Shown one piece after another: positions 2,187 through 64,000 of a stretch of DNA of 64,000 nucleotides (position 1 is the stretch's first letter; each line of letters opens with the position of its first letter). Origin of the DNA: Candidatus Nanopelagicales bacterium. Lineage in GTDB: Bacteria; Actinomycetota; Actinomycetes; S36-B12; GCA-2699445. Location: positions 1 through 64,000 of the forward strand of contig JAUYJT010000027.1 in the NCBI GenBank assembly GCA_030700225.1, in the 5' to 3' direction. The notes beneath the pieces are model-generated. The model was given only the letters and a program-made list of their open reading frames with translations, was not told where the DNA came from and did no database searches. Position numbers and translations under genes: made by a program.

Positions 2187-2426
2187 ATGGGCGTCACTAT
2201 CAAGAACGCTGTGGCCGAACAACTCATCCGGGAGCTGGCGGCCCTGACCGGCGAAACGAAGACCGAGGCCCTGACGAAGGCAGCCAGAGAACGCCTTGAG
2301 CGGCTCCGGCGCATCAGCCAGCGTGATCGGATCGATCAAGCCGCCCATGACCTGCAGGAATCCCTGGTCGGCAAGGAGCCACTGAGCACCGATGCCCTTT
2401 ACAACGCCGCAGGACTACCCGGATGA
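2187..2426 (+). CDS. vapB: VapB-type antitoxin
   Basis: 79-residue protein of the type II antitoxin PSK/VapB family. The N-terminus (GVTIKNAVAEQLIRELAALTG) is predicted to form the DNA-binding part, followed by a charged helical region and a short C-terminal tail that should clamp the toxin. Its last four bases (ATGA) overlap the start of the PIN-domain gene, the translational coupling expected of a toxin-antitoxin pair. A GGGAG ribosome site lies before the ATG. A palindrome just upstream is a likely autoregulatory operator. It is not a MazE- or RelB-like antitoxin by sequence appearance; the partner decides the VapB name. Confidence 0.85.
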   Translation: MGVTIKNAVAEQLIRELAALTGETKTEALTKAARERLERLRRISQRDRIDQAAHDLQESLVGKEPLSTDALYNAAGLPG

Positions 2427-2818
2427 TCATCGACACATCCGTGGTCATCGCCATCGGTAATCGTGAGCCCGACGCCGATCGGCTGCTGGAAGCACTGCGC
2501 ACAGCTGACCGGATCCGCGTCTCCGCCGTCACATGGGTCGAGATCGGGATCGTCGTTGACTCACGCGACGACCCCCTTGTCGCCAGGCGTGCTGACGACC
2601 TCTTCTCCGAGCTGGATGTAGTAGTCGAACCGGTGACGCCCGAGCAAGGGCGAATCGCGCGCCAGGCATACCGGGACTTCGGCAAGGGCCGCCACGCCGC
2701 TGGCTTGAACTTCGGCGATTGCTTCTCCTACGCACTTGCCAAGGTCACCCGCGAACCCCTGCTCTTCAAGGGCTCCGACTTCAGCCTCACCGACATTCAC
2801 CCGGCCCAGCTCGCCTAA
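2423..2818 (+). CDS. vapC: VapC-type toxin, PIN-domain ribonuclease
   Basis: 131-residue PIN-domain endoribonuclease. The family cuts tRNA or rRNA in a Mg-dependent way when freed from VapB. The conserved acidic residues are present: D4 in IIDTSVV, E40 in TWVEIG, D99 in NFGDCFSY and probably D119 in KGSDFS, so the enzyme looks intact. It overlaps vapB by four bases. The gene is convergent with hemW, and a 74-base palindromic repeat lies between the two stop codons. The cellular target cannot be read from the sequence. Confidence 0.93.
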   Translation: MIIDTSVVIAIGNREPDADRLLEALRTADRIRVSAVTWVEIGIVVDSRDDPLVARRADDLFSELDVVVEPVTPEQGRIARQAYRDFGKGRHAAGLNFGDCFSYALAKVTREPLLFKGSDFSLTDIHPAQLA

Positions 2819-2850: not shown

Positions 2851-2924
2851 GTGATCTTGTTGCGAAAACGGCCAAATGTGGCCGCTTCGCGTATCTGAAG
2901 TGGCCGGAAGCGCTACAAGATCAC
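2851..2924 (+). repeat. Structured 74-base intergenic repeat, copy 1
   Basis: First of three near-identical copies (others at 32674-32746 and 34455-34528), all in the same orientation. Ends are the perfect inverted repeat GTGATCTTGT / ACAAGATCAC. Inside are the hairpins CGGCCA-AATG-TGGCCG and CTTC-N8-GAAG. It starts 32 bases after the vapC stop and lies between two converging genes. The hemW stop codon (2921-2923) falls inside its right arm. No similarity to a named repeat family is claimed. Confidence 0.9.
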
Positions 2925-8468: not shown

Positions 8469-9470
8469 TCAGGCGGTCATTCGCACAATCAACTGTTCAA
8501 GGACAGCCAGCTTCTGCTCATCGTCCAGCGCCTGACCCCCTTCCAGGCCACCCTTCATGTCCGCATCAAGTCCCGGCAGTACAACAGCGAACCGCGCGAT
8601 GCGCCGCGGCGTCCACCCGAAACGCCGGATGTTCTCCCTGGCTCGATCCAGTTGCCAAGGCTGTACTCCTACTCGGGCTGCCACGGCGGAACCGGTCTGG
8701 CTGGCCAACGCCATCACTCGTAGGCCATGAGCCAAGGCCGCGACAACCGAAACGCCCACGCCCTTCTGGCCGCCTCGCCGCTCCATCCCCCGCAGCAGCC
8801 GGATGGCTTCAGCTGACCTGCCTGCCCACACGTGGTCGGCGACTTTGAACGAGCTGATCTTCGCCTGCGCTGGGAATCTCGCCTGGACAGTCTCTGGCGT
8901 GACGTGGCCGTCGGAGCTGTCGGCCACCGCCTGACGCACCGCCGCCAGCAGCAGTCCCAGGGAATTGATGCCGATGGCCTCAACTAGCCACTGCTCAGCC
9001 TCGGGGTCCAGGGTTCCTCCTGCCTGGGCAGCCGCCCGACGCATCACGCCTCTCGCATCTGACTCAGTCGGTTTGGCGCACTTGATGATCTGGGCGCCCG
9101 CCTTCGCGCCAGCGTTGATCACACCACGGCCTTTCGCCCCCCCGCCGTGCCCGACCACCAGCACCGGACCGGCACCGTCGGCGACAACGGACTTGAGCAC
9201 CTCGATGGCATCCGCGTCAGCTGACTCCGTAGCGAGGGCCACGATGATGGGCGAGTCCCCGAATAGGCTTGGCTCGAGCGCCTGGCGCAGCCTTTCCAGC
9301 GCGGACAAGCCAGCCGGGTCGTCGGTCGGCGAGCTGAAGTCAATCGTGACAAGCCCGAGATCGGGGAACGCTTTCCGGCGGGCCGCGACCGCTGCGGCCA
9401 ATTCGCCTTCCACGACAGCTGGCTCGGGTCCAGTCACGATCGCGACCCTAGGTACGGCTTGGACGTTCAC
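8469..9470 (-). CDS. holA: DNA polymerase III delta subunit
   Basis: 333-residue clamp-loader delta subunit, which opens the beta sliding clamp. Recognised from overall pattern: an N-terminal region with VAIVTGPEPAVVEGELAAAV, the mid-protein AAA-like fold without a working P-loop, and the C-terminal helical segment (RIARFAVVLPGLDADMKGG... LAVLEQLIVRM). Position downstream of comEA-comEC, next to rpsT, is the conserved setting for holA in actinobacteria and supports the call. About 49 bases separate it from comEC. Confidence 0.93.
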   Translation of the reverse strand: MNVQAVPRVAIVTGPEPAVVEGELAAAVAARRKAFPDLGLVTIDFSSPTDDPAGLSALERLRQALEPSLFGDSPIIVALATESADADAIEVLKSVVADGAGPVLVVGHGGGAKGRGVINAGAKAGAQIIKCAKPTESDARGVMRRAAAQAGGTLDPEAEQWLVEAIGINSLGLLLAAVRQAVADSSDGHVTPETVQARFPAQAKISSFKVADHVWAGRSAEAIRLLRGMERRGGQKGVGVSVVAALAHGLRVMALASQTGSAVAARVGVQPWQLDRARENIRRFGWTPRRIARFAVVLPGLDADMKGGLEGGQALDDEQKLAVLEQLIVRMTA

Positions 9471-12734: not shown

Positions 12735-13041
12735 CCTTCGAAGCTAGGTCCGATAGGTCATCCCGGCGAGCCATGTTCTCGCCCTGTGGACTAGCACCTG
12801 TTCGTCCACAAGCAAGCCGAATATGGGCGGGTCGGTGCGCGCTACGGTCACGACATCCGCACCGCGGTAACCTCCCACAGCGTCCGAACTGCCCGATCCA
12901 CCCCAGCCATCGACGGAAACGGCCGCTAACGCAAGACGCGACAGTTTCCGAAAGAAACGCCTGTTCTAACGGGCGCGTCTGTACCCAAACATTCGCGTTT
13001 GTCGGGAACGGCCGCTAACGCAAGGGGTGGGCAGGAGATGG
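12735..13041. other. 307-base intergenic region with two direct repeats and internal palindromes
   Basis: No convincing gene. It holds two 22-base direct repeats with one mismatch (12914-12935 and 13003-13024, core AACGGCCGCTAACGCAAG). Between them is a palindromic stretch: GACGCG (12935-12940) pairs with CGCGTC (12974-12979), and an inner ACAGTTTC...GAAACGCCTGT hairpin lies inside. CAAAC-N6-GTTTG follows. It separates comEA from the 3' end of the thioesterase gene. Confidence 0.6.
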
Positions 13042-13566
13042 CTAGCCCGGCGGAGTTCGATACAGGCAGGTCAGCCGGGCCGTGCAAACCGGCCGGTCGT
13101 TCTCGTCTGTCAGGGAGATCATCAGGGTCGCCAGAGTGCGGCCGATCACCAGCGGTTTGGCCACAGCGGTCACGGTGCCGGAAGTGGCCGATCGGTGATG
13201 CGCGCACGACAGTTCGATGCCGACGGGGAAGCGGCCCTCGGGGGCAAGAAGCGCCGCCAGCATCGATCCGATTGATTCAGCCAGCACAGCGCTCGCGCCG
13301 CCGTGAAGAAGCCCCATCGGCTGCCGGTTCCCCACAACGGGCATCGTCGCCCGGATCCCATCGGGCCGGGCCTCCGTTATGCGGATACCCATGCGTTCCG
13401 CCAGCTCGCCGTGGTGCTGATTCAGGCGCTCGACGACATCAACAGGCCAGCTATCGCCGGGCTGAATCTGGGGGATAGGGGGGAAGGAGTCTTCAGCGTC
13501 TGGGGGTCCCCCCGCCCGCCGCGCTGCGGCGGGGAGGGGGAGAGGCGCAGGGAGGGATTCCGTCAC
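13042..13566 (-). CDS. PaaI-family hotdog thioesterase
   Basis: 174-residue hotdog-fold acyl-CoA thioesterase. The core includes the catalytic-loop region PMGLLHGGASAVLAESIGS, with the HGG motif typical of PaaI/MenI-like enzymes, and a C-terminal strand ending VCTARLTCLYR. MenI-like and general aromatic acyl-CoA hydrolases share this pattern, so the substrate is open. The start is uncertain: GTG at 13566 leaves a Pro/Ala-rich N-terminal extension of about 40 residues over a GC-rich hairpin; an ATG at 13611 would begin only 13 bases from the divergent polA start. No good ribosome site decides it. Confidence 0.85.
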   Translation of the reverse strand: MTESLPAPLPLPAAARRAGGPPDAEDSFPPIPQIQPGDSWPVDVVERLNQHHGELAERMGIRITEARPDGIRATMPVVGNRQPMGLLHGGASAVLAESIGSMLAALLAPEGRFPVGIELSCAHHRSATSGTVTAVAKPLVIGRTLATLMISLTDENDRPVCTARLTCLYRTPPG

Positions 13567-28190: not shown

Positions 28191-28968
28191 CCACTCACAC
28201 GCACACGTGCCTGGAGAGTTCCTGTACTCCCCAGGTGAAACGCGCGTACATCGCTGTCCGGCCCATGTGAAGCTGCTGGCCGCCTTGGCGACTCTCACAG
28301 TGATCGTTGCCACGCCGGGCCGGGCCGTTTGGGCGTTCGCGGCGTACTTCGCTTTGGTACTGGTGATTCTTAGCCTGGCACGGCTTTCGGTCCGGCTCGT
28401 CTTGCCCAGACTGGCGGTGGAGCTGCCGTTCCTTGCGTTCGCTGTACTGCTGCCGTTCCTCGGGACCGATCCAAGAATCCAGGTGGGCACGGTGTCGTTG
28501 TCTGAGCCGGGGCTTTGGGCGGCATGGACGTTGGCGGCTAAGGCGACACTGGGCGTGCTGATCGCGATCGCGCTCTCGGCTACGACTTCGACGACCGAAC
28601 TGCTTGACGCCATGCGGCGATTACGGGTACCCGACCTGTTCGTGCAGATCCTGACGGCCATGGTCCGCTACATACACGTTGTGGGGCAGGAGTCATCGAG
28701 GATGTCGAGGGCCAGGGCCGCTCGGGGATTCTCCGCGAAGGGAGTGCGATCGTGGCCCGTACTGGGGCTGGCATTGGGCACGCTGTTCATCCGTTCGTAT
28801 GAGCGTGGGGAGCGCGTCCACTGCGCGATGCTCAGTCGCGGCTACAGCGGGCAGCCACCGCGGCTTCGGGAGGTCATGCCCGTATCGATCGGTGCGTGGG
28901 TTGCCGCCGCTGCTCTGCCTGCCTCGGCACTGTCCGTCTTGGCCGTAGCGGTGGCGCTGCCGACATGA
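28183..28968 (+). CDS. cbiQ: Cobalt/nickel ECF transporter T component CbiQ
   Basis: 261-residue transmembrane scaffold of the ECF importer. The EcfT signature arginine-containing segments that contact the ATPases are visible: SRMSRARAARGF and HCAMLSRGYSG. The His-rich start (GSHSHAHVPGE) may bind metal or reflect the metal substrate. It starts at GTG 28183 inside the previous gene and its final ATGA overlaps the CbiO start. Confidence 0.93.
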   Translation: MGSHSHAHVPGEFLYSPGETRVHRCPAHVKLLAALATLTVIVATPGRAVWAFAAYFALVLVILSLARLSVRLVLPRLAVELPFLAFAVLLPFLGTDPRIQVGTVSLSEPGLWAAWTLAAKATLGVLIAIALSATTSTTELLDAMRRLRVPDLFVQILTAMVRYIHVVGQESSRMSRARAARGFSAKGVRSWPVLGLALGTLFIRSYERGERVHCAMLSRGYSGQPPRLREVMPVSIGAWVAAAALPASALSVLAVAVALPT

Positions 28969-29714
28969 ACACGGCACCGAGCCTGAGGGTGCGGGGGCTG
29001 ACTTACAGCCATCCCGACGGAACCGTGGCGCTGGCTGGTGTAGACCTGACGATTCAGAGGGGAGAGCGGGTCGCCGTACTCGGACCTAACGGTGCCGGCA
29101 AGACGACCCTGGCGCTGCATCTGAACGGGCTCCTGCGACCTGGCAGCGGGTCGGTCGAGGTCGGGGGGGAGACAGTCACTTCGGCGAACGTCGCTTCCGT
29201 CCGGCGCGACGTCGGCTTGGTGTTCCAGGATCCGGACGATCAGTTGTTCATGCCAACCGTGCGTGACGATGTGGCGTTCGGGCCGGCCAACGCGGGGATT
29301 CGCGGTGACGAGCTCACGCGGCGCGTGGAGCTGGCCCTAGCTGACGTCGACATGCTGGATCTGATCGACCGTCCGCCTCACCATCTGTCCCTCGGGCAGC
29401 GGCGCCGTGTCGCAATCGCCACGGTTCTTTCCATGGACCCGAAGATCCTGGTGCTTGATGAACCCAGCTCGAACCTCGACCCGGCGAGCCGCCGCGAAGT
29501 CGCCGAGATCCTGGTCAGCTTGGGCCGGACCACTGTCGTTGTCACCCATGACTTGCCGTATGCCTTGCAGATCTGCCCTCGTGCTGTGATCTTGAGCCAG
29601 GGCCGCATTGTCCGGGACGGTGCGACGCCGGAGCTGCTGCGCGACACCGAATTGTTGTCCGCGAACCGTCTCGAACTGCCCTACGGCTTCAATCTGGCGG
29701 ATGTGACCGCGTAG
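28965..29714 (+). CDS. cbiO: Cobalt/nickel ECF transporter ATPase CbiO
   Basis: 249-residue ABC ATPase. Walker A is GPNGAGKTT, the Q-loop lies in LVFQDPDDQLF, the signature is LSLGQRRRVAIA, and Walker B is ILVLDEPSSNLDP, then the H-loop VVVTHD. It should homodimerise to power CbiMNQ. The ATG at 28965 overlaps the cbiQ stop; earlier starts are rejected. Confidence 0.95.
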   Translation: MNTAPSLRVRGLTYSHPDGTVALAGVDLTIQRGERVAVLGPNGAGKTTLALHLNGLLRPGSGSVEVGGETVTSANVASVRRDVGLVFQDPDDQLFMPTVRDDVAFGPANAGIRGDELTRRVELALADVDMLDLIDRPPHHLSLGQRRRVAIATVLSMDPKILVLDEPSSNLDPASRREVAEILVSLGRTTVVVTHDLPYALQICPRAVILSQGRIVRDGATPELLRDTELLSANRLELPYGFNLADVTA

Positions 29715-30655: not shown

Positions 30656-32650
<1,995 letters not shown>

Positions 32651-32673
32651 CCTTGGCGCGGATTCGGCCAAGT

Positions 32674-32746
32674 GGATCTTGTTGCGAAAACGGCCAAATG
32701 TGGCCGCTTCGCGTATCTGAAGTGGCCGGAATCGCGACAAGATCAC
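32674..32746 (+). repeat. Structured 74-base intergenic repeat, copy 2
   Basis: Same orientation and sequence as copies 1 and 3. Its arms GATCTTGTTGCG / CGCGACAAGATC pair over 12 positions with one G-T pair. The interior hairpins CGGCCA-AATG-TGGCCG and CTTC-N8-GAAG are retained. It lies between the acetoacetyl-CoA synthetase stop and the Lnt-like start. Confidence 0.9.
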
Positions 32747-32845
32747 GTAGTGGTTGGATACCGCGGATATCCGGGCGCGAGCTCACCGAGCGACCAAGCG
32801 CTCTGGCGGCTAGATTCGTCCCATTCCGCGAGGCAGGGAGGCGCG

Positions 32846-34450
32846 ATGGCCGCGACGGCACCTGCGAGACAACCATCCGATCGCACATCTCTGCCGACTG
32901 AGCCCCCGACTAGCACGCGCAAGACTCTGCTGGGCTTGGGCTTGTCGGCGGTTAGCGCGGTCATGTTGTACGTGACGTGCGACGGACACGGGTCCTTGTG
33001 GCCGTTGATCATCGTGGGCTTCGTTCCCATGTACGTGGCCCAGTACCGGCTTCTGCCCCGCAGGTTGTCGGGACTGGCTGTTGGTATCGCGTTCTTCGGT
33101 TACTGGCTGTCGCTGTTGATGTACAGCAGCAGCGTTGCTGAGTTCTTGGGTGGGCCGCTGGTGGCCTTGCTCATCATCATCGTGGCCGCAGCGGTGATGT
33201 CGGTCCCGTTGTTCGTCTTCGGGATCTTCGAGCGCCCGTTCTCTGAGCGCACGAAGTACAAGTGGTTCGTCATCCAGCTGCCGCTGGTTTGGGTGGGGCT
33301 TGAGGTTGTCTTTGGAGCGAATCCGTTCTTCGCCACCAACTACTGGATGGCGTATCGAATGGCGTCGGTCCCGGCGCTGGATCAGCCCGTCAGCGTCTTG
33401 AGCACGCCAGCACTCAGCCTTCTGCTCATGATGATCAACGCTGGGATCGCGATACTGGTTCTGAAGTGGATCGATCGCCGGTGGCCGTCCTTGGCTTCTG
33501 TGGCGATCCCAGGCCGTACGGTGAAATGGTCTGCCGGAATCGCGTTGTGCTTGACCGTTATATGGATCGCGTCGAGTCTGCTGATCAACGCCCGAGTCAA
33601 CAGCCAGCTCGGCCCCGTGGTTCGTGTGGCCGCCGTCCAACCCGGGAACGAGAACAGGAGCGAGCCGGGACAACGTCAGGCGCAAGACGCTCCCAGCGAA
33701 ATCGAGCGCAATGTGAGGCTGAGCGCCCAGATGGAAGGGCTGACGCGTGATGCGGCCGCCCAAGGCGCGAAGTTGATCGTGTGGCCCGAGAAGCTCCTTG
33801 AGTATGACGCCGCAACCGAGCAGGGGGCGTGGGTAGGAGACCTGGCCAGTGAGACGCAGACGACGATCGTCGCCGGTTGGATGCCGCAGTCTCCGGATCC
33901 GTCCTCGGCCAACATAGCTGGCGCCTGGCTGCCGTCCGGGCAGCTAGCGGGTATCTACTACAAGATCCACCCAGTCACGCTCGAAGGCGAGTCGTTCAAC
34001 ACTCCTCAGGAGTACCCGACGTTCACCACGCCCGTTGGACAGCTGGGTGTCCTGATCTGTTTCGACCACGACTTCCCTGATAGCTCCGCCCGGCTGGAGA
34101 CGCTTGGCGGCGCCGACATCTTGGCAGTGCCGGCGCTGGACCCGGCATCAATCGCTAACTTGCGCTGGCAGTCGCTCACGTTCCGCGCGATCGAGAACCG
34201 GGTTCCGCTCGTGAAGACAGACGTCGGCTGGGATAGCGCCATCATCAACGCCAACGGCGTAGTCGCGGATCGCACAGCGGTGCCGAACCCTGACGGCGCG
34301 GAGGAGGTCCTGGTCGCGGACGTTAACCTCGGACCCCGGAACTCCGTATTCACCAAAGTTGGTGGCTACACATTCGCTCTGCTAGTTGTCATAGGCCTGG
34401 TCAGCCGCTACACGTACCAATTCAGGCTGGCGCGGTCCGATTCTGGCTAG
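32846..34450 (+). CDS. lnt: Apolipoprotein N-acyltransferase-like membrane nitrilase
   Basis: 534-residue protein with an N-terminal bundle of about six transmembrane helices and a C-terminal extracytoplasmic nitrilase domain. The nitrilase triad is present: Glu in WPEKLLEY, Lys in YYKIHPVTLEGE and Cys in LICFDHDFPD. Lnt transfers an acyl chain to the N-terminal Cys of lipoproteins; actinobacteria do carry Lnt homologs. The start is ATG at 32846 after AGGGAGG. The gene is bracketed by two direct copies of the 74-base repeat. Carbon-nitrogen hydrolases of other function are a weaker alternative. Confidence 0.85.
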   Translation: MAATAPARQPSDRTSLPTEPPTSTRKTLLGLGLSAVSAVMLYVTCDGHGSLWPLIIVGFVPMYVAQYRLLPRRLSGLAVGIAFFGYWLSLLMYSSSVAEFLGGPLVALLIIIVAAAVMSVPLFVFGIFERPFSERTKYKWFVIQLPLVWVGLEVVFGANPFFATNYWMAYRMASVPALDQPVSVLSTPALSLLLMMINAGIAILVLKWIDRRWPSLASVAIPGRTVKWSAGIALCLTVIWIASSLLINARVNSQLGPVVRVAAVQPGNENRSEPGQRQAQDAPSEIERNVRLSAQMEGLTRDAAAQGAKLIVWPEKLLEYDAATEQGAWVGDLASETQTTIVAGWMPQSPDPSSANIAGAWLPSGQLAGIYYKIHPVTLEGESFNTPQEYPTFTTPVGQLGVLICFDHDFPDSSARLETLGGADILAVPALDPASIANLRWQSLTFRAIENRVPLVKTDVGWDSAIINANGVVADRTAVPNPDGAEEVLVADVNLGPRNSVFTKVGGYTFALLVVIGLVSRYTYQFRLARSDSG

Positions 34451-34454
34451 CGCG

Positions 34455-34528
34455 GTGATCTTGTTGCGAAAACGGCCAAATGTGGCCGCTTCGCGTATCT
34501 GAAATGGCCGGAATCGCGTCAAGATCAC
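34455..34528 (+). repeat. Structured 74-base intergenic repeat, copy 3
   Basis: Identical in orientation to copies 1 and 2 and starting five bases after the stop of the Lnt-like gene. Outer arms GTGATCTTG / CAAGATCAC pair; two arm positions differ from the other copies. It lies between a plus-strand gene and the minus-strand tRNA-Lys. Confidence 0.9.
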
Positions 34529-34548
34529 GCATGGGCACGAACCACGAG

Positions 34549-34621
34549 TACGCCGCCAGGGACTTGAACCCTGAACCCACAGATTAAGAGTCTGTTGCTC
34601 TGCCAATTGAGCTAGCGGCGC
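34549..34621 (-). tRNA. tRNA-Lys (anticodon CUU)
   Basis: Full cloverleaf on the minus strand: acceptor GCGCCGC / GCGGCGT, anticodon arm ACAGA-CTCTTAA-TCTGT with anticodon CTT, T arm CAGGGTTCAAGTCCCTG. Discriminator is A; CCA is not encoded. Confidence 0.96.
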
Positions 34622-34699: not shown

Positions 34700-37600
34700 T
34701 CAGATGTCAGCGGCCCCGAAGCCTCCGCCGCCGGGAGTCTCGATGACCAGCACGTCGCCTGGGTGAACCTGGCGGGTGTCGGTCCCTGACATTGGCTCGT
34801 GGGTGCCGTCGGCTCGCTCGATCCAGTTGCGCCCGACTTGACCAGGGCTTCCACCGCGCAGACCGAAGGGCGGTAGGCGGCGCCTGTTGGACAGGATGCC
34901 GACTTGCATGTCAGCCAGGAATCGCAGCCGGCGGACGACGCCGTCGCCGCCCCGGTGGCGTCCAGGTCCACCGCTACCGGCCCGGATTGAGAACTGACCG
35001 ACCAGGACGGGGAACCTCAGCTCGAGAACCTCAGGATCGGTTAGCCGCGAGTTTGTCATGTGACTCTGGACGGCCGAAGCGCCATCGAAGTCAGGGCCCG
35101 CGCCCGTCCCGCCGCAGATCGTCTCGTAGTACTGTCGCTCGGCGTCACCGAAAGTCAGGTTGTTCATCGTGCCTTGGGCGGCGGCTTGAACCCCGAGCGC
35201 CGCGAAGAGCGCGTCGGTGATCGCCTGGCTGGTCTCGACGTTGCCTGCGACGACGGCGGCTGGGTACTCGGGGGAGAGCATGCTGTGCGGAGAAATGACG
35301 ATCTTGATAGGGATGAGGCAGCCGTCGTTAAGCGGGATGTCATCGTCGACGAGGCAGCGAAAGACATACAGGACCGCTGCTCGGCAGATCGCGCTGGGTG
35401 CGTTGAAGTTGTCCGCGAGCTGCGCGCTGGTACCCGTGAAGTCGACTGTCGCCGAGCGGCGATCGCGGTCAACCGACACCCGGACCTGTACGCGGGCGCC
35501 GTTGTCCATCTCGCACACGAAAGAACCGGGGGTCAACGCCTCGATCGCCCGCCGCACGCTCTCTTCAGCATTGCGTTGGACATGGCCCATGTAGGCGTGA
35601 ACGGTCGGCAGTCCGAACTGCTCAATCATCGCCCGCAGCTCGACAACGCCCTTCTGGTTGGCGGCGATCTGCGCCACCAAGTCCGCGATGTTTCGATCGG
35701 GGTTGCGGCTCGGAAAGGGGCCACAGGTCAGCAGTGCGTGCACTCCCGCCACGTCGAAGACGCCACCGCTCACGAGCTTCACGTTGTCCAGGACCACGCC
35801 TTCCTCATCCAGAGTCCGGCTGTCGGGAGGCATCGAACCGGGGGACTTGCCTCCGATGTCCGCGTGGTGTGCGCGGCTGCCGACGAAGAACAGCGGCGCG
35901 GGGGAGTGCGACGAGGAGGTCTTGGTCAACTCCAGCGCGTCCTCGGCGAACACTGGTGTGACAACGGTGATGTCTGGCAGGTGGGTGCCGCCTCGGTAGG
36001 GGGCGTTGAGAGCGAACACGTCCCCTGGACTCATGGGCGTACTGGAGACGAGCGACCTGACGCTCTCGCTCATCGACCCCAGGTGAACGGGGATGTGCGG
36101 GGCGTTCGCCACCAAGGCCCCGGATGGGTCGAAGATCGCGCAGGAGAAGTCCAGCCTCTCCTTGATGTTGACCGACGAAGCTGTGTTCCGAAGCGTCACG
36201 CCCATCTGTTCGGCGATGGACATGTACAAGTTGTTGAACACCTCGAGCATCACCGGGTCGACCTGTGTTCCGACCGCTGGCCCACGGCTTCGCGGCTCTA
36301 CCCGGGCCAGCAGCAGGCTCCCGGAAGGAGTCACGACCGCGCTCCACCCGCTGTCCACGACGGTCGTCGCCGTTGGGTCGGAGATGATGGCTGGCCCCTT
36401 GATGACATGTCCAGCGGCCAACTCGGATCTGATGTAGACGCCCGCGGTGTGCTCCACTCCATCGGCGAAGAGCCTGATGAGTGCCCGCGGCTGGTCTCGT
36501 GGAGCTGTGGCGGTGACTGCGGCAAGACCACGCATGAGTTCCTGATCCCATACACCTTCCGCGGCCAGGGCATCGATCATGATGGCCTTCTCGGGCCATG
36601 AGAAGCCGAACCGCGACTGGTGCTGGGCTCGAAAGTCGCGGCCCATCGTCCCAGGCGGCCCCCACGGCACTGGGATAGTCGAATCAGTCCCCTCGTACTT
36701 CAAGAAAGCCGTCCGGAGGACTCGAATGGCGTCGACGGGAGCCCCTTGCGCCGCAAGCTCGGAGGTCACCCCCGCCGCCAGCGCGGCCACTTCTTCGGCG
36801 AGGTCTGGCGCATCGCTCAAGGGTTCCTCGATGGACTTCTCGCGAAGAGCCCTGAGGTCCGCCATCCCCATCCCGTACGCGGAGAGAACGCCAGCCAGGG
36901 GATGGATCAGGATGCGGGTCATCCCGAGCGCGTCAGCTATCCCGCAAGCGTGCTGCCCTCCAGCCCCGCCGAAGCAGCACAGCGCGTACTGGGTCACGTC
37001 GTGACCCTGCTGAACGGAGATCTTCTTGATCGCATTGGCCATGTTGAGCACGGCGATCCGGAAGAACCCCTCCGCCACTGCTCGGGGGTCACGGGTGTCG
37101 CCAGTGGCCAGATGGATCCGCTGGGCGAGGGACGCGAGACGAGATTCAACTGCCTCGACGTCGATTGACTGGTCTTGGGCCGGACCGAATGTTGAAGGGA
37201 AGAACGCTGGCTGGATCCTGCCCAGCATCACGTTGCAATCTGTGAGAGTCAGGGGGCCATTCCGCCTGTAGCAGGCTGGCCCAGGGTCGGCGCCCGCCGA
37301 TTCGGGGCCCACTCTGTAGCGGCTCCCATCGAATCTGCAGATCGACCCACCGCCCGCCGCCACCGTGTTGATGGTCAGCATCGGCGCGCGCATCCGCACT
37401 CCAGCCACCTCGGTCTCATGGGAGCGTTCGAATTCCCCGGAGAAGTGGGCGACGTCCGTTGATGTGCCTCCCATGTCGAAAGTGATCACGCGATCGAAGC
37501 CTTCGAGGCGGCTGGCCTCAACTGCCCCAACCACACCTCCAGCCGGTCCGGAAAGCACCGCGTCCTTTCCCCGGAAAGCGTCGACGCGGGCGAGGCCGCC

Positions 37601-38359
37601 GTTCGATTGCATGAACATCAGGTTCACGCCCGGAAGCTCAGCAGCCAGATGGCTTATGTATCGGTGGAGGATCGGGGATAGGTAGGCGTCGACGACAGTC
37701 GTGTCGCCCCTGCCAACGAGTTTGATTAGCCTGCTGGCTTCGTGGCTGGCCGTGACGTGCTCGAAGCCCATCGCCCTGGCCAACTCGGCGACCTGGAGTT
37801 CGTGGGCCGGGAAGCGGTAGGAGTGCATGAACACGATGGCGACGCTCGTGATTCCGGTAGCCGCCGCTGAGAGGAGCTTGGCTCGAACCGCGTCCAGGTC
37901 AGGGCACTTGAGGACGTCCCCGGAGGCTGTGATCCTCTCGTCGACCTCGATGACGACGGAGTACAAGGGCTCGGGCAGCACGATCTGCCGGTCGAACAGT
38001 CGCGGCCTGTTCTGATAGCCGATACGCAGTGCATCGCGGAAGCCTCGAGTCGTCACCAGGATGGTCGGCTCTCCCGTGCGTTCAAGCAGCGCGTTCGTGG
38101 CCACCGTCGTTCCCATCCTCATCGACGAGATGAGGTGCGCCGGGATAGGCCCGTCAGTCGTGCCGAGCAGATCCCTGATGCCTTGAAGCGCCGCGTCCCG
38201 GTAGTGGTCGGGTGCTTCAGAGAGCAACTTGCGCACGGCGATTTCACCGTCGGGTCGCCGCCCTATGACGTCTGTGAACGTGCCACCGCGATCGATCCAG
38301 AAGTCCCAGCCGCGCTCGGGCGTGGCCTGCTCCGGAGTTGCTGATGGCATCTCGGTCAT
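34700..38359 (-). CDS. Fused 5-oxoprolinase / hydantoinase (HyuA-HyuB)
   Basis: 1219-residue ATP-dependent hydrolase fusing both subunits of the hydantoinase/oxoprolinase family. HyuA (about 1-690) has the nucleotide-binding [25 protein letters not shown] and the Cys-containing [13 protein letters not shown]. HyuB (about 700-1219) has [33 protein letters not shown] and the ending [13 protein letters not shown]. The single-chain architecture is that of eukaryotic and some bacterial 5-oxoprolinases, which open 5-oxo-L-proline to glutamate; N-methylhydantoinase or acetone-carboxylase relatives are alternatives. It is divergent from a TetR gene across a palindromic operator. Confidence 0.88.
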
Positions 38360-46671: not shown

Positions 46672-47876
46672 GCTGGCACCTCACGCGGCTGGGCTGGCAG
46701 TTGGGTTTGTGGATGGGGTACACGCGGGGAAGCGATGGCGGGGAAAGCCGCGACAATGACAGCGAGTGTCGTGCCGATGGAGACATCTGGCCACGCGGGG
46801 GGCGACGCTGGCCCCACCAGGATCTGCGCTGAGCCTAGGGCTACGAAGACGACGGCCGGGACGAATCCCAGAGTCGACACAATCCACTCCGGCAACCCCC
46901 AAGGGTCTGGACGGTATCGCGTGCGCAGCACCCGCCTACCAGCGAAGATCCCGCCGAGGATGGCCATGAGGGTTCCTGCCAGGAGCATCGGCCAGCCGAG
47001 CACAGGAACTCCTTCGACGCCGGGGGATGCTCCCTGGAGCAAGGCGTACAACCCGATCACCGCACCGAACAGCCCGGTTATCACAAGGACCGCGGTCACG
47101 GCCCGGGCACGGGGTGTCTCGCCTGTGCCTCGGCCGTACCCACGCGAGTCCATCGACGCGGCCAGCGCGATCGATCGCTCGAGTGCTCCGTTGAAGAGTG
47201 GCATCGCCATCTCGGTCCACGCGCGCAGACCTTTGGTGGCCCTTCCTCTCAGGCGGCGGGCTCCACGAATCCTTACGGCGTCCGACACCATCATCGGGGC
47301 GAACGTCAGGCACACCACGACCGCGACCCCGACTTCGTAGAGAGCCGCTGGGACGATCCGCAGCAGGCGGCTGGGGTGGACAAGCGCATTCGCGGCCCCC
47401 ACGCACGCGAGCATGACGGCCAGACGCAGACCGTCGTACACCGCCAGCAGAAGTGCATCCGCTGTGACAACACCACCGAGGTGGATGCCAGCGATCCAAC
47501 TGGGCAGCTGAATCTGCGGCAGCGTGAACAGGGGAGTGCCCACCTGCGATGAACCGACGAAGACCTCGAGGATGACTCTCAGCCCGACGACGATCAGACC
47601 GAGGCGAAGGAACGCCCCGAATGACTTCGCCCAAGGCCCGGGAGCACGACGCTCGGCGACCACTAGCCCAGCGACGGCCGCGATCAGGATCAGCAGGATC
47701 GGGTTCGTCGTGCGGCTGGCCGCGGTAGCCAGCCCGAGCGCCCACAGCCACCACGCGCCCGGATGCAGCAATCGTGGGGCGAAGGACGACGGCGCCACGA
47801 TGCCTCCCATCGGGCGGTCCGGGCGGGCGTCGCGCGACTTGCGCCACCTCCGTTCCGCAGACCACGGCGGACTCAT
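46668..47876 (-). CDS. ECF transporter transmembrane (T) component
   Basis: 402-residue protein with about seven to eight hydrophobic helices and the EcfT coupling segment SMDSRGYGRGTGE that contacts the ATPases. It is long for an EcfT, with an N-terminal charged stretch and a C-terminal extra helix pair. The start at 47876 has GGAAG eight bases upstream, within reach of the riboswitch platform; an internal ATG at 47810 would give a shorter N-terminus. Confidence 0.88.
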   Translation of the reverse strand: MSPPWSAERRWRKSRDARPDRPMGGIVAPSSFAPRLLHPGAWWLWALGLATAASRTTNPILLILIAAVAGLVVAERRAPGPWAKSFGAFLRLGLIVVGLRVILEVFVGSSQVGTPLFTLPQIQLPSWIAGIHLGGVVTADALLLAVYDGLRLAVMLACVGAANALVHPSRLLRIVPAALYEVGVAVVVCLTFAPMMVSDAVRIRGARRLRGRATKGLRAWTEMAMPLFNGALERSIALAASMDSRGYGRGTGETPRARAVTAVLVITGLFGAVIGLYALLQGASPGVEGVPVLGWPMLLAGTLMAILGGIFAGRRVLRTRYRPDPWGLPEWIVSTLGFVPAVVFVALGSAQILVGPASPPAWPDVSIGTTLAVIVAAFPAIASPRVPHPQTQLPAQPREVPA

Positions 47877-47878
47877 GC

Positions 47879-47985
47879 AGGTAGCTTCCGCAGCGGGCGT
47901 TCCGGCTCACCTTGCTGGTTCACGGCTGCGGGTCAGCGTCGGAATCTCACCGACTTCCCCCACCGCGGAGCTAGCGGCAGTCTAG
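47879..47985 (-). promoter_or_regulatory. Cobalamin (B12) riboswitch upstream of the ECF operon
   Basis: On the minus strand the leader contains the conserved core GGGGAAG-TCGGTGAGATTCC, then ACCCGCAGCCGTGA, and the B12-box-like GTGAGCCGGAACGCCCGC close to the gene start. These segments, in this order and spacing, are characteristic of actinobacterial cobalamin riboswitches. The GGAAG ribosome site lies directly after the B12 box, so binding of adenosylcobalamin could block translation. Outer limits are approximate. Confidence 0.85.
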
Positions 47986-61980: not shown

Positions 61981-62358
61981 GCGGCTGCGGTGGTGTCGGC
62001 GTCCTTGGCTTGGGCTCGCAGGGCCCGGACGGTCGAGTCGCGCCCTTCGGCGACGAGTCGCCGGGCCGCCGTAGTCAGAGTGCCGTCCGCCAGGAGTCGG
62101 TCGGCGGCTGCGACTGTAGCGTCTTCGACGAGCAGGTGCGGGTACAAGAGGTTCGTCATCGACTTGGCGGTGTCCGGGGTGCGCGTTTTCCAAAGGTTCG
62201 GCAGCGACTCGAAGTAGCGATTCGCGAACGGCCGCAGCAGATCCCGCTGCCCGGGTTGGATGAATCCAGACATCGTCGCGTTGAGAACGGCGTTGGGAAG
62301 TTCATCGGAGTCGACAGCCTGGGACCACGCCTGGTTCTTGGCGTCAGTGGTGGGGCGA
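61974..62358 (-). pseudogene. Truncated duplicate of the pepN 3' end
   Basis: About 128 codons matching the C-terminus of aminopeptidase N (MSGFIQPGQRDLLRPFANRYF... VRALRAQAKDADTTAAAQ). The region from 61999 to 62358 is about 97% identical to 63519-63878, with 11 differences counted by eye. In frame, a TGA directly upstream (around 62365) closes the reading frame, so it cannot make PepN. Its stop overlaps the malQ stop (TTACTGA at 61974-61980), a tidy convergent junction suggesting this is the original pepN end. Confidence 0.85.
61999..62358. repeat. 360-base direct repeat, copy A (pepN 3' segment)
   Basis: Direct repeat of 63519-63878 at a distance of 1520 bases. Identity begins at GCGTCCTTGGCT and ends at GTGGGGCGA. 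The pair brackets a plus-strand gene for a secreted NHL/FN3 protein. Confidence 0.9.
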
Positions 62359-63475: not shown

Positions 63476-64000
63476 CTAGGGCTGGCGCGACGGTGACCTG
63501 GAGCCCGACACGGCACCAGCGTCCTTGGCTTGGGCTCGCATGGCCCGGACGGTCGAGTCGCGCCCTTCGGCGACGAGTCGCCGGGCCGCCGTAGTCAGAG
63601 TGCCGTCCGCCAGGAGTCGGTCGGCGGCTGCGACTGTAGCGTCTTCGACGAGCAGGTGCGGGTACAAAAGGTTCGTCATCGACTTGGCGGTGTCCGGGGT
63701 GCGCGTCTTCCAAAGGTTCGGCAGCGACTCGAAGTAGCGATTCGCGAACGGCCGCAACAGATTCCGCTGCCCGGGTTGGATGAATCCAGACATCGTCGCG
63801 TTGAGAACGGCGTTGGGAAGTTCATCGGAGTCGACAGCCTGGGACCACGCCTCGTCCTTGGCCTCGGCAGTGGGGCGAGCCGCGAGAGCCAGTGCCTTGT
63901 GACGCTGTCCTGTGGATGTCGCGTCCCTGGCCGCTTCGGCTTCGATCCGTTCGCTATCGGCCCTGCCTCTGGCGGCGAGTCGCTGGAGCAGATGCCACCG
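63476..64000 (-). CDS. pepN: Aminopeptidase N (partial; N-terminal part beyond window)
   Basis: C-terminal 174 residues of a M1 aminopeptidase of the ERAP1-like C-terminal type: RWHLLQRLAARGRAD, QAVDSDELPNAVLN, SGFIQPGQRNLLRPF, YFESLPNLWKTRTP. The zinc site HExxH would lie beyond base 64000. Its end differs from the duplicated copy A: after VRAMRAQAKDA comes GAVSGSRSPSRQP, encoded by unrelated sequence, so the protein has a replaced tail. It should still be functional if the rest is intact. Confidence 0.85.
   Translation of the reverse strand, partial: RWHLLQRLAARGRADSERIEAEAARDATSTGQRHKALALAARPTAEAKDEAWSQAVDSDELPNAVLNATMSGFIQPGQRNLLRPFANRYFESLPNLWKTRTPDTAKSMTNLLYPHLLVEDATVAAADRLLADGTLTTAARRLVAEGRDSTVRAMRAQAKDAGAVSGSRSPSRQP
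63519..63878. repeat. 360-base direct repeat, copy B (pepN 3' segment)
   Basis: Second copy of the segment at 61999-62358, inside the intact-looking pepN reading frame. 11 differences from copy A were counted by eye, scattered along the segment, most of them near the far end. Confidence 0.9.

What the first reader, a model, noticed from the sequence alone, without database searches (positions are those of the whole stretch)
32674..34528. Lnt-like gene bracketed by two direct copies of the 74-base repeat
Copies 2 and 3 lie 1.78 kb apart in the same orientation and enclose exactly one gene, the Lnt-like acyltransferase. With copy 1 at 2851 the family has three near-identical members in 64 kb, so it is probably a genome-wide element. 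Each folds into an outer stem plus inner hairpins (CGGCCA-AATG-TGGCCG and CTTC-N8-GAAG). Direct copies allow deletion or exchange of the gene between them. I know of no named actinobacterial repeat that matches, though I could not search.
Basis: partly seen in the sequence, partly recalled or inferred. Interest (0 to 1): 0.62.

Follow-up and report, generated by a model that had tools for sequence, protein, structure and literature searches.

The report
Genome-specific 74-bp palindromic repeat around Lnt
A 74-base palindromic repeat, present in about 16 copies in this bacterium and almost nowhere else, flanks a fatty-acid-transfer gene that two related bacteria lack at this spot; it looks like one more miniature mobile repeat of a familiar kind, with its mobilising enzyme unidentified.

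Summary
Three copies (2851-2924, 32673-32746, 34455-34528; 97% identical) lie in the window, and copies 2 and 3 enclose one Lnt-like gene in direct orientation. The genome (2.62 Mb MAG) holds 16 blastn-level copies, plus one decayed copy and two doubtful ones. There is no Rfam, plasmid, phage or viral-contig match and no convincing full copy in 148 related genomes. The repeat is an inverted doublet of a 24-nt unit (RTGATCTTGTNGCGNNNNCGGCCA) around a conserved 26-nt centre. The arms keep their sequence but do not covary, and I saw no target-site duplications. The only HUH transposase is a decayed IS605 TnpA, so no RAYT was found. New result: in two same-family genomes of other genera the locus reads ACS > tRNA-Lys > < hydantoinase, without Lnt or repeats. 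Here Lnt with both repeats is extra DNA, and tRNA-Lys is flipped. Copy 1 likewise sits with a VapC gene that is absent between hrcA and hemW in relatives. Copies cluster in pairs around single genes (3 pairs) and just behind tRNA genes (3 of 14). Best reading: a REPIN/MITE-like non-autonomous repeat, a new member of a known kind. A gene-cassette role is possible but unproven.

The parts
2851..2924 (+). repeat copy 1 (C27a): two 24-nt arms + 26-nt centre; between vapC(+) and hemW(-), supplies the hemW stop codon TGA
32648..32746 (+). repeat copy 2 (C27b), compound form: degenerate extra left unit 32648-32672 beginning on the ACS stop codon, then a full copy 32673-32746
   Evidence: same compound layout on contig C46
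34455..34528 (+). repeat copy 3 (C27c), 4 nt after the lnt stop and 19 nt from the tRNA-Lys 3' end
32846..34450 (+). Lnt-like gene (LNT_N + CN_hydrolase, 534 aa), the bracketed gene
   Evidence: start inferred from GGGAGG before ATG
30656..32650 (+). acyl-CoA synthetase-like gene (AMP-binding), left syntenic anchor
34548..34621 (-). tRNA-Lys(CTT); opposite orientation to the syntenic tRNA in two relatives
34700..38359 (-). hydantoinase/oxoprolinase A-B fusion, right syntenic anchor
2423..2818 (+). VapC-like PIN protein next to copy 1; no match between hrcA and hemW in G001, G008

Best explanation
The repeat is a miniature non-autonomous mobile repeat that works like a REPIN or MITE. Two inverted copies of a 24-nt bipartite recognition unit (TGATCTTGT-N-GCG-N4-CGGCCA) flank a short centre. 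The unit is probably bound as DNA by a transposase or recombinase acting in trans. That enzyme is now lost, unsampled or unrecognised. Copies settle between genes, mostly behind gene or tRNA 3' ends and at sites where this lineage has gained genes. Shown: copy number, unit layout, intergenic placement, lineage restriction, and that Lnt plus both copies are extra DNA relative to two relatives. Inferred: mobility, the trans-acting enzyme, and that the Lnt bracket came from two insertions (or a local duplication) at a gene-gain site rather than from a dedicated cassette system.
For: 16 copies in the own genome; 14 align over full length with strongly conserved GATCTTG, GCG and GGCCA blocks in both arms. 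A partial 31-bp hit is all that blastn finds in 148 relatives. Arms are conserved in sequence, not by compensation. Copies are outside the called genes, apart from shared stop codons. Copies 1 and 2 contribute the stop codon of a neighbouring gene. In G001 and G004 the ACS - tRNA-Lys - hydantoinase locus lacks Lnt and repeats; in G001 and G008 hrcA and hemW are adjacent without vapC or repeat. A genome of another family in the order has its own ~70-bp repeat with a similar nested layout but another unit sequence, as expected if such elements diversify by lineage. Size and doublet layout match published REPINs (PMC3116915).
Against: No target-site duplication seen by eye at 14 copies. No longer element with the same ends was seen among the sites found with the 13-nt end pattern. 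No RAYT. No empty-site allele from a close relative, so precise insertion is not shown. Some copies share 20-30 bp of flank on each side (C14/C77, C81/C49b), which suggests segmental duplication for part of the family.
Confidence: 0.6

Rival explanations
1. The repeat is a recombination site that lets single genes move as cassettes: a gene between two copies is excised or inserted by recombination at the repeats.
For: Three pairs of copies lie less than 1.8 kb apart, each around one called gene: Lnt; an AbiEi/DUF559 protein (C49); an orphan 148-aa ORF (C23). Uniform placement gives three such gaps with P about 2e-4, post hoc. The Lnt segment is absent from two relatives and is bounded by the two copies.
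Against: The C49 pair is inverted, the other two direct. Eight of 14 copies belong to no pair. No recombinase is tied to the family. No cassette was found at two different repeat sites. The Lnt paralog on C81 (55% aa) is 1.9 kb from a copy but not bracketed. tRNA-Lys is flipped although it lies outside the pair.
Confidence: 0.15
2. The repeat acts mainly as RNA: a bidirectional terminator or mRNA 3'-end stabiliser between convergent genes, spread because it is useful there.
For: Stable hairpin on both strands. Six copies lie between convergent genes, several 0-70 nt behind stop codons, three 12-24 nt behind tRNA 3' ends.
Against: No compensatory change above shuffles; columns 11/64 and 15/60 are unpaired in over half of the copies. 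No T-run follows any copy on the + side in the flanks read. Three copies lie between divergent genes.
Confidence: 0.15
3. The unit is a binding site of a chromosomal protein (nucleoid-associated protein or regulator), and the copies are an ordered set of sites, not mobile DNA.
For: Bipartite, strongly conserved unit in inverted and (C27b, C46) direct arrangement; variable spacer base 11.
Against: The 26-nt centre is conserved as well, which a binding site would not need. Copies cluster in pairs and are nearly absent from sister genera.
Confidence: 0.08

Closest known systems
REPIN / REP elements with RAYT (IS200/IS605-like) transposases
   Same: Inverted doublet of a conserved short unit, about 70-100 bp, palindromic, extragenic, lineage-specific; no target-site duplication seen here
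   Different: No GTAG or CGTC tag at the foot of the unit, no RAYT in a 95.7% complete genome, only about 16 copies, conserved rather than variable centre
MITEs with terminal inverted repeats (Correia/NEMIS-like)
   Same: Short, near-perfect 15-bp terminal inverted repeats, intergenic, fold into a long hairpin, can supply stop codons
   Different: No target-site duplication and no parent insertion sequence with the same ends found
Integron gene cassettes with attC sites
   Same: Imperfect palindrome in the size range of attC (recalled, 57-141 bp) beside a single gene
   Different: No RYYYAAC/GTTRRRY core by reading, integron integrase not searched, no cassette array

Membership tests
REPIN/REP (RAYT-mobilised) | Inverted doublet of a conserved palindromic unit, extragenic | tested here: met
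REPIN/REP (RAYT-mobilised) | GTAG (or CGTC) tetranucleotide tag at one end of the unit (PMC3733652) | tested here: not met
   unit begins RTGATCTTGT and ends CGGCCA in the alignment
REPIN/REP (RAYT-mobilised) | RAYT gene in the genome, flanked by the repeat | tested here: not met
   single Y1_Tnp hit is a decayed IS605 TnpA beside TnpB with no repeat near it; genome 95.7% complete, so absence is not absolute
MITE | Terminal inverted repeats | tested here: met
   15 bp near-perfect ends within 24-nt arms
MITE | Target-site duplication | tested here: not met
   flanks of 14 copies inspected by eye, none seen; no empty site available
MITE | Parent insertion sequence sharing the ends | tested here: inconclusive
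   genome-wide end pattern with up to 1 mismatch and inspection of about 20 loci; transposases were not searched family by family
Integron cassette (attC) | attC core sites and integron integrase | tested here: inconclusive
   no attC core seen by reading; integrase not searched
Rfam RNA family | Score above gathering threshold | tested here: not met
   only tRNAs and one cobalamin riboswitch
Intrinsic terminator | G+C-rich hairpin followed by a T-run | tested here: not met
   no T-run directly after the stem in the flanks of 14 copies

The most novel reading that the evidence does not exclude
The repeats are sites of an unknown single-gene cassette system: palindromic sites, often placed behind tRNA genes, between which single accessory genes (Lnt, AbiEi/DUF559, orphan ORFs) are inserted, lost or inverted by a recombinase not yet recognised.
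Probability: 0.08. Interest if true: 0.8.

Novelty: new member of a known kind. Interest (0 to 1): 0.36.

Why it matters
Short palindromic repeats with known transposases are mostly described from Proteobacteria and Cyanobacteria; the survey read here lists no actinobacterial family (PMC3733652). A lineage-restricted family without a recognisable transposase adds a case for how such repeats spread. The bracketed Lnt gives a concrete locus where gain of a single gene, two repeats and a flipped tRNA can be dated by strain comparison.

Tried and rejected
RAYT association: rejected. Rfam, plasmid, phage and viral-contig matches: none. RNA selection by covariation: no signal. Autonomous copy with the same ends: of the 13-nt end hits with up to 1 mismatch, most that were inspected outside known copies lie in unrelated, mostly coding-looking sequence. 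Analogous repeats in samples of two same-family genomes (G002 89 kb, G003 169 kb): no comparable family seen. Palindromes around Lnt in relatives: none seen at their Lnt genes. Lnt as recent foreign DNA by composition: GC3 0.78 equals the window mean. The Verrucomicrobia hit of the genome scan is a chance match of half a unit.

Full report
Observation. Copies 2 and 3 are 1.78 kb apart and enclose one gene. The protein matches LNT_N (5e-9) and CN_hydrolase (3e-20) over the cut-offs, so 'Lnt-like' is right. The longest frame starts at a GTG at 32672, one base before copy 2, but ATG 32846 behind GGGAGG is the likelier start, which puts copy 2 about 100 nt upstream of the coding sequence.

Genome-wide family. 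The window is part of a 2.62 Mb, 85-contig, 95.7% complete genome. It has 16 blastn-level copies: 14 full-length or nearly so, and two half copies (C50, C43) that lie in one duplicated stretch (88% over about 790 bp). A covariance model finds the same set plus a decayed copy on C20 (E = 0.001) and doubtful ones on C38 and C79. The end pattern TGATCTTGTNGCG with at most 1 mismatch has 78 hits against 11 for the reversed control, but most sites inspected outside known copies are unrelated.

Anatomy. The 14 copies align in 76 columns at 88% mean identity. The left arm and the reverse complement of the right arm have nearly one consensus, RTGATCTTGTNGCGNNNNCGGCCA. Between them lies AATG-TGGCCGCTTCGCG-TATCTGAAG, whose first part is a shortened third unit in reverse orientation. 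Copy 2 and the C46 copy carry a further left unit joined at ..GGCCAARTG|GATCTTG.., a four-unit form. In copy 2 this extra unit begins on the TGA stop of the ACS gene; the right end of copy 1 holds the TGA stop of hemW.

Structure versus sequence. Both strands fold well (z = -6.4 and -6.3). On the full palindrome 89.1% of cells pair, but the covariation measures do not exceed shuffles, and columns 11/64 and 15/60 fail to pair in 9 and 8 of 14 copies. Conserved sequence with free-drifting spacer bases fits recognition of DNA ends better than selection on an RNA stem. No T-run directly follows any copy.

Distribution outside. No Rfam family matches. No plasmid or phage record matches, and no viral contig. 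Of 148 related genomes only one has a 31-bp partial hit. A scan of 99 with the model adds a weak hit in G049, which on inspection is a different repeat, with its own small family (at least three places) and the unit TCGGGCRTTNGCGGCCA in the layout unit>..unit>..<unit..<unit. That layout resembles the four-unit copies here; whether the two are related by descent is not shown. The scan of GTDB genome contigs found one true outside copy, in a MAG named Solirubrobacteraceae (JAUYGN01 contig 8), 94% identical over 168 bp to the C81 site, flanks included. That MAG has only this one strong copy, so transfer or mis-binning cannot be told apart.

Context. With a home-made gene caller, copies are outside called genes except at stop codons. 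About six lie between convergent genes, four in tandem gaps, three between divergent genes. Three of 14 lie 12-24 nt behind tRNA 3' ends (tRNA-Lys CTT, tRNA-Lys TTT, tRNA-Met); taking 45-50 tRNA genes (assumed) and intergenic space as 12% of the genome (assumed), P is about 3e-5, post hoc. Three pairs lie under 1.8 kb apart, P about 2e-4 for uniform placement, also post hoc. Each pair encloses one called gene: Lnt, an AbiEi/DUF559 protein, and an orphan ORF. Two copies stand beside PIN-domain (VapC-like) genes.

The Lnt locus in relatives. In G001 and G004 (same family, two other genera) the neighbours are conserved: ACS, hydantoinase/oxoprolinase, tRNA-Leu(TAG), tRNA-His(GTG), the gene matching window 28965-29714, and in G004 the GroES-like gene. 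There ACS is followed directly by tRNA-Lys(CTT) on the same strand, and in G001 the hydantoinase follows after a short spacer, with no Lnt and no repeat. In G004 2.3 kb of other DNA lies between the tRNA and the hydantoinase. In the window, ACS is followed by copy 2, Lnt, copy 3 and then tRNA-Lys on the opposite strand. So the segment from the ACS stop to copy 3 is extra DNA here, and tRNA-Lys is inverted, while tRNA-Leu and tRNA-His keep their orientation. Lnt is patchy in the order and sits elsewhere in G004; the own genome has two further Lnt-like genes (C81, C79). Whether Lnt was gained here or lost in both relatives is not proven, but gain is simpler, since both relatives share the order ACS - tRNA-Lys. 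The same pattern holds for copy 1: HrcA and HemW genes are adjacent in G001 and G008, while here vapC and copy 1 lie between them.

Mechanism. The best reading is a REPIN/MITE-like repeat moved in trans by an enzyme that I did not find. The only Y1 transposase is a decayed IS605 TnpA beside TnpB with no copy nearby. REPINs are inverted doublets of about this size (PMC3116915), and REPs carry GTAG or CGTC tags (PMC3733652), which are missing here. I therefore say it works like a REPIN/MITE but do not file it as a member of the RAYT-mobilised REPs. The cassette idea fits the three bracketed genes and the Lnt locus, but lacks a recombinase, a shared cassette or a deleted allele.

Limits. The genome is a fragmented MAG; organism names are withheld; the closest held relatives are of other genera, so empty sites at base level were not available. 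The transposase inventory of the genome was not completed. Statistics on pairs and tRNAs were thought of after seeing the data.

Noticed in passing
window 12906-13045; also L050:1504-1632, L068:6609-6747, L069:6764-6893, L079:1912-2048: A second, apparently more abundant intergenic repeat family of about 110-125 bp with conserved core GTTGCAACGGGCGCGTCTGTACCC...CGCGTTTGTCGGGAACGGCCGC; about 10 copies in 250 kb sampled, no Rfam match in the window.
   Followed up: partly
window 34548-34621: tRNA-Lys(CTT) is inverted relative to the syntenic locus of two relatives, though the repeats lie on one side of it only.
   Followed up: partly
L155:6738-6811 and 8762-8803 (G002): tRNA-Lys(TTT) with a 42-bp, 98% direct copy of its 3' half 2 kb downstream, as left by an integrated element.
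   Followed up: no
L070:2362-3897 (C81) and C79:11440-13005: Two further Lnt-like paralogs in the same genome (55% and 36% aa); Lnt is patchy among relatives.
   Followed up: partly
L093 (JAUYGN010000008.1) 1-2300: Contig of a MAG called Solirubrobacteraceae shares several scrambled stretches with C81, including a repeat copy, next to a partial ISL3-family transposase; transfer or mis-binning.
   Followed up: partly
window 61999-62358 and 63519-63878: Direct 360-bp repeat, 97% identical, 1.5 kb apart.
   Followed up: no
window 47875-47981 (-): Cobalamin riboswitch, 46 bits.
   Followed up: no
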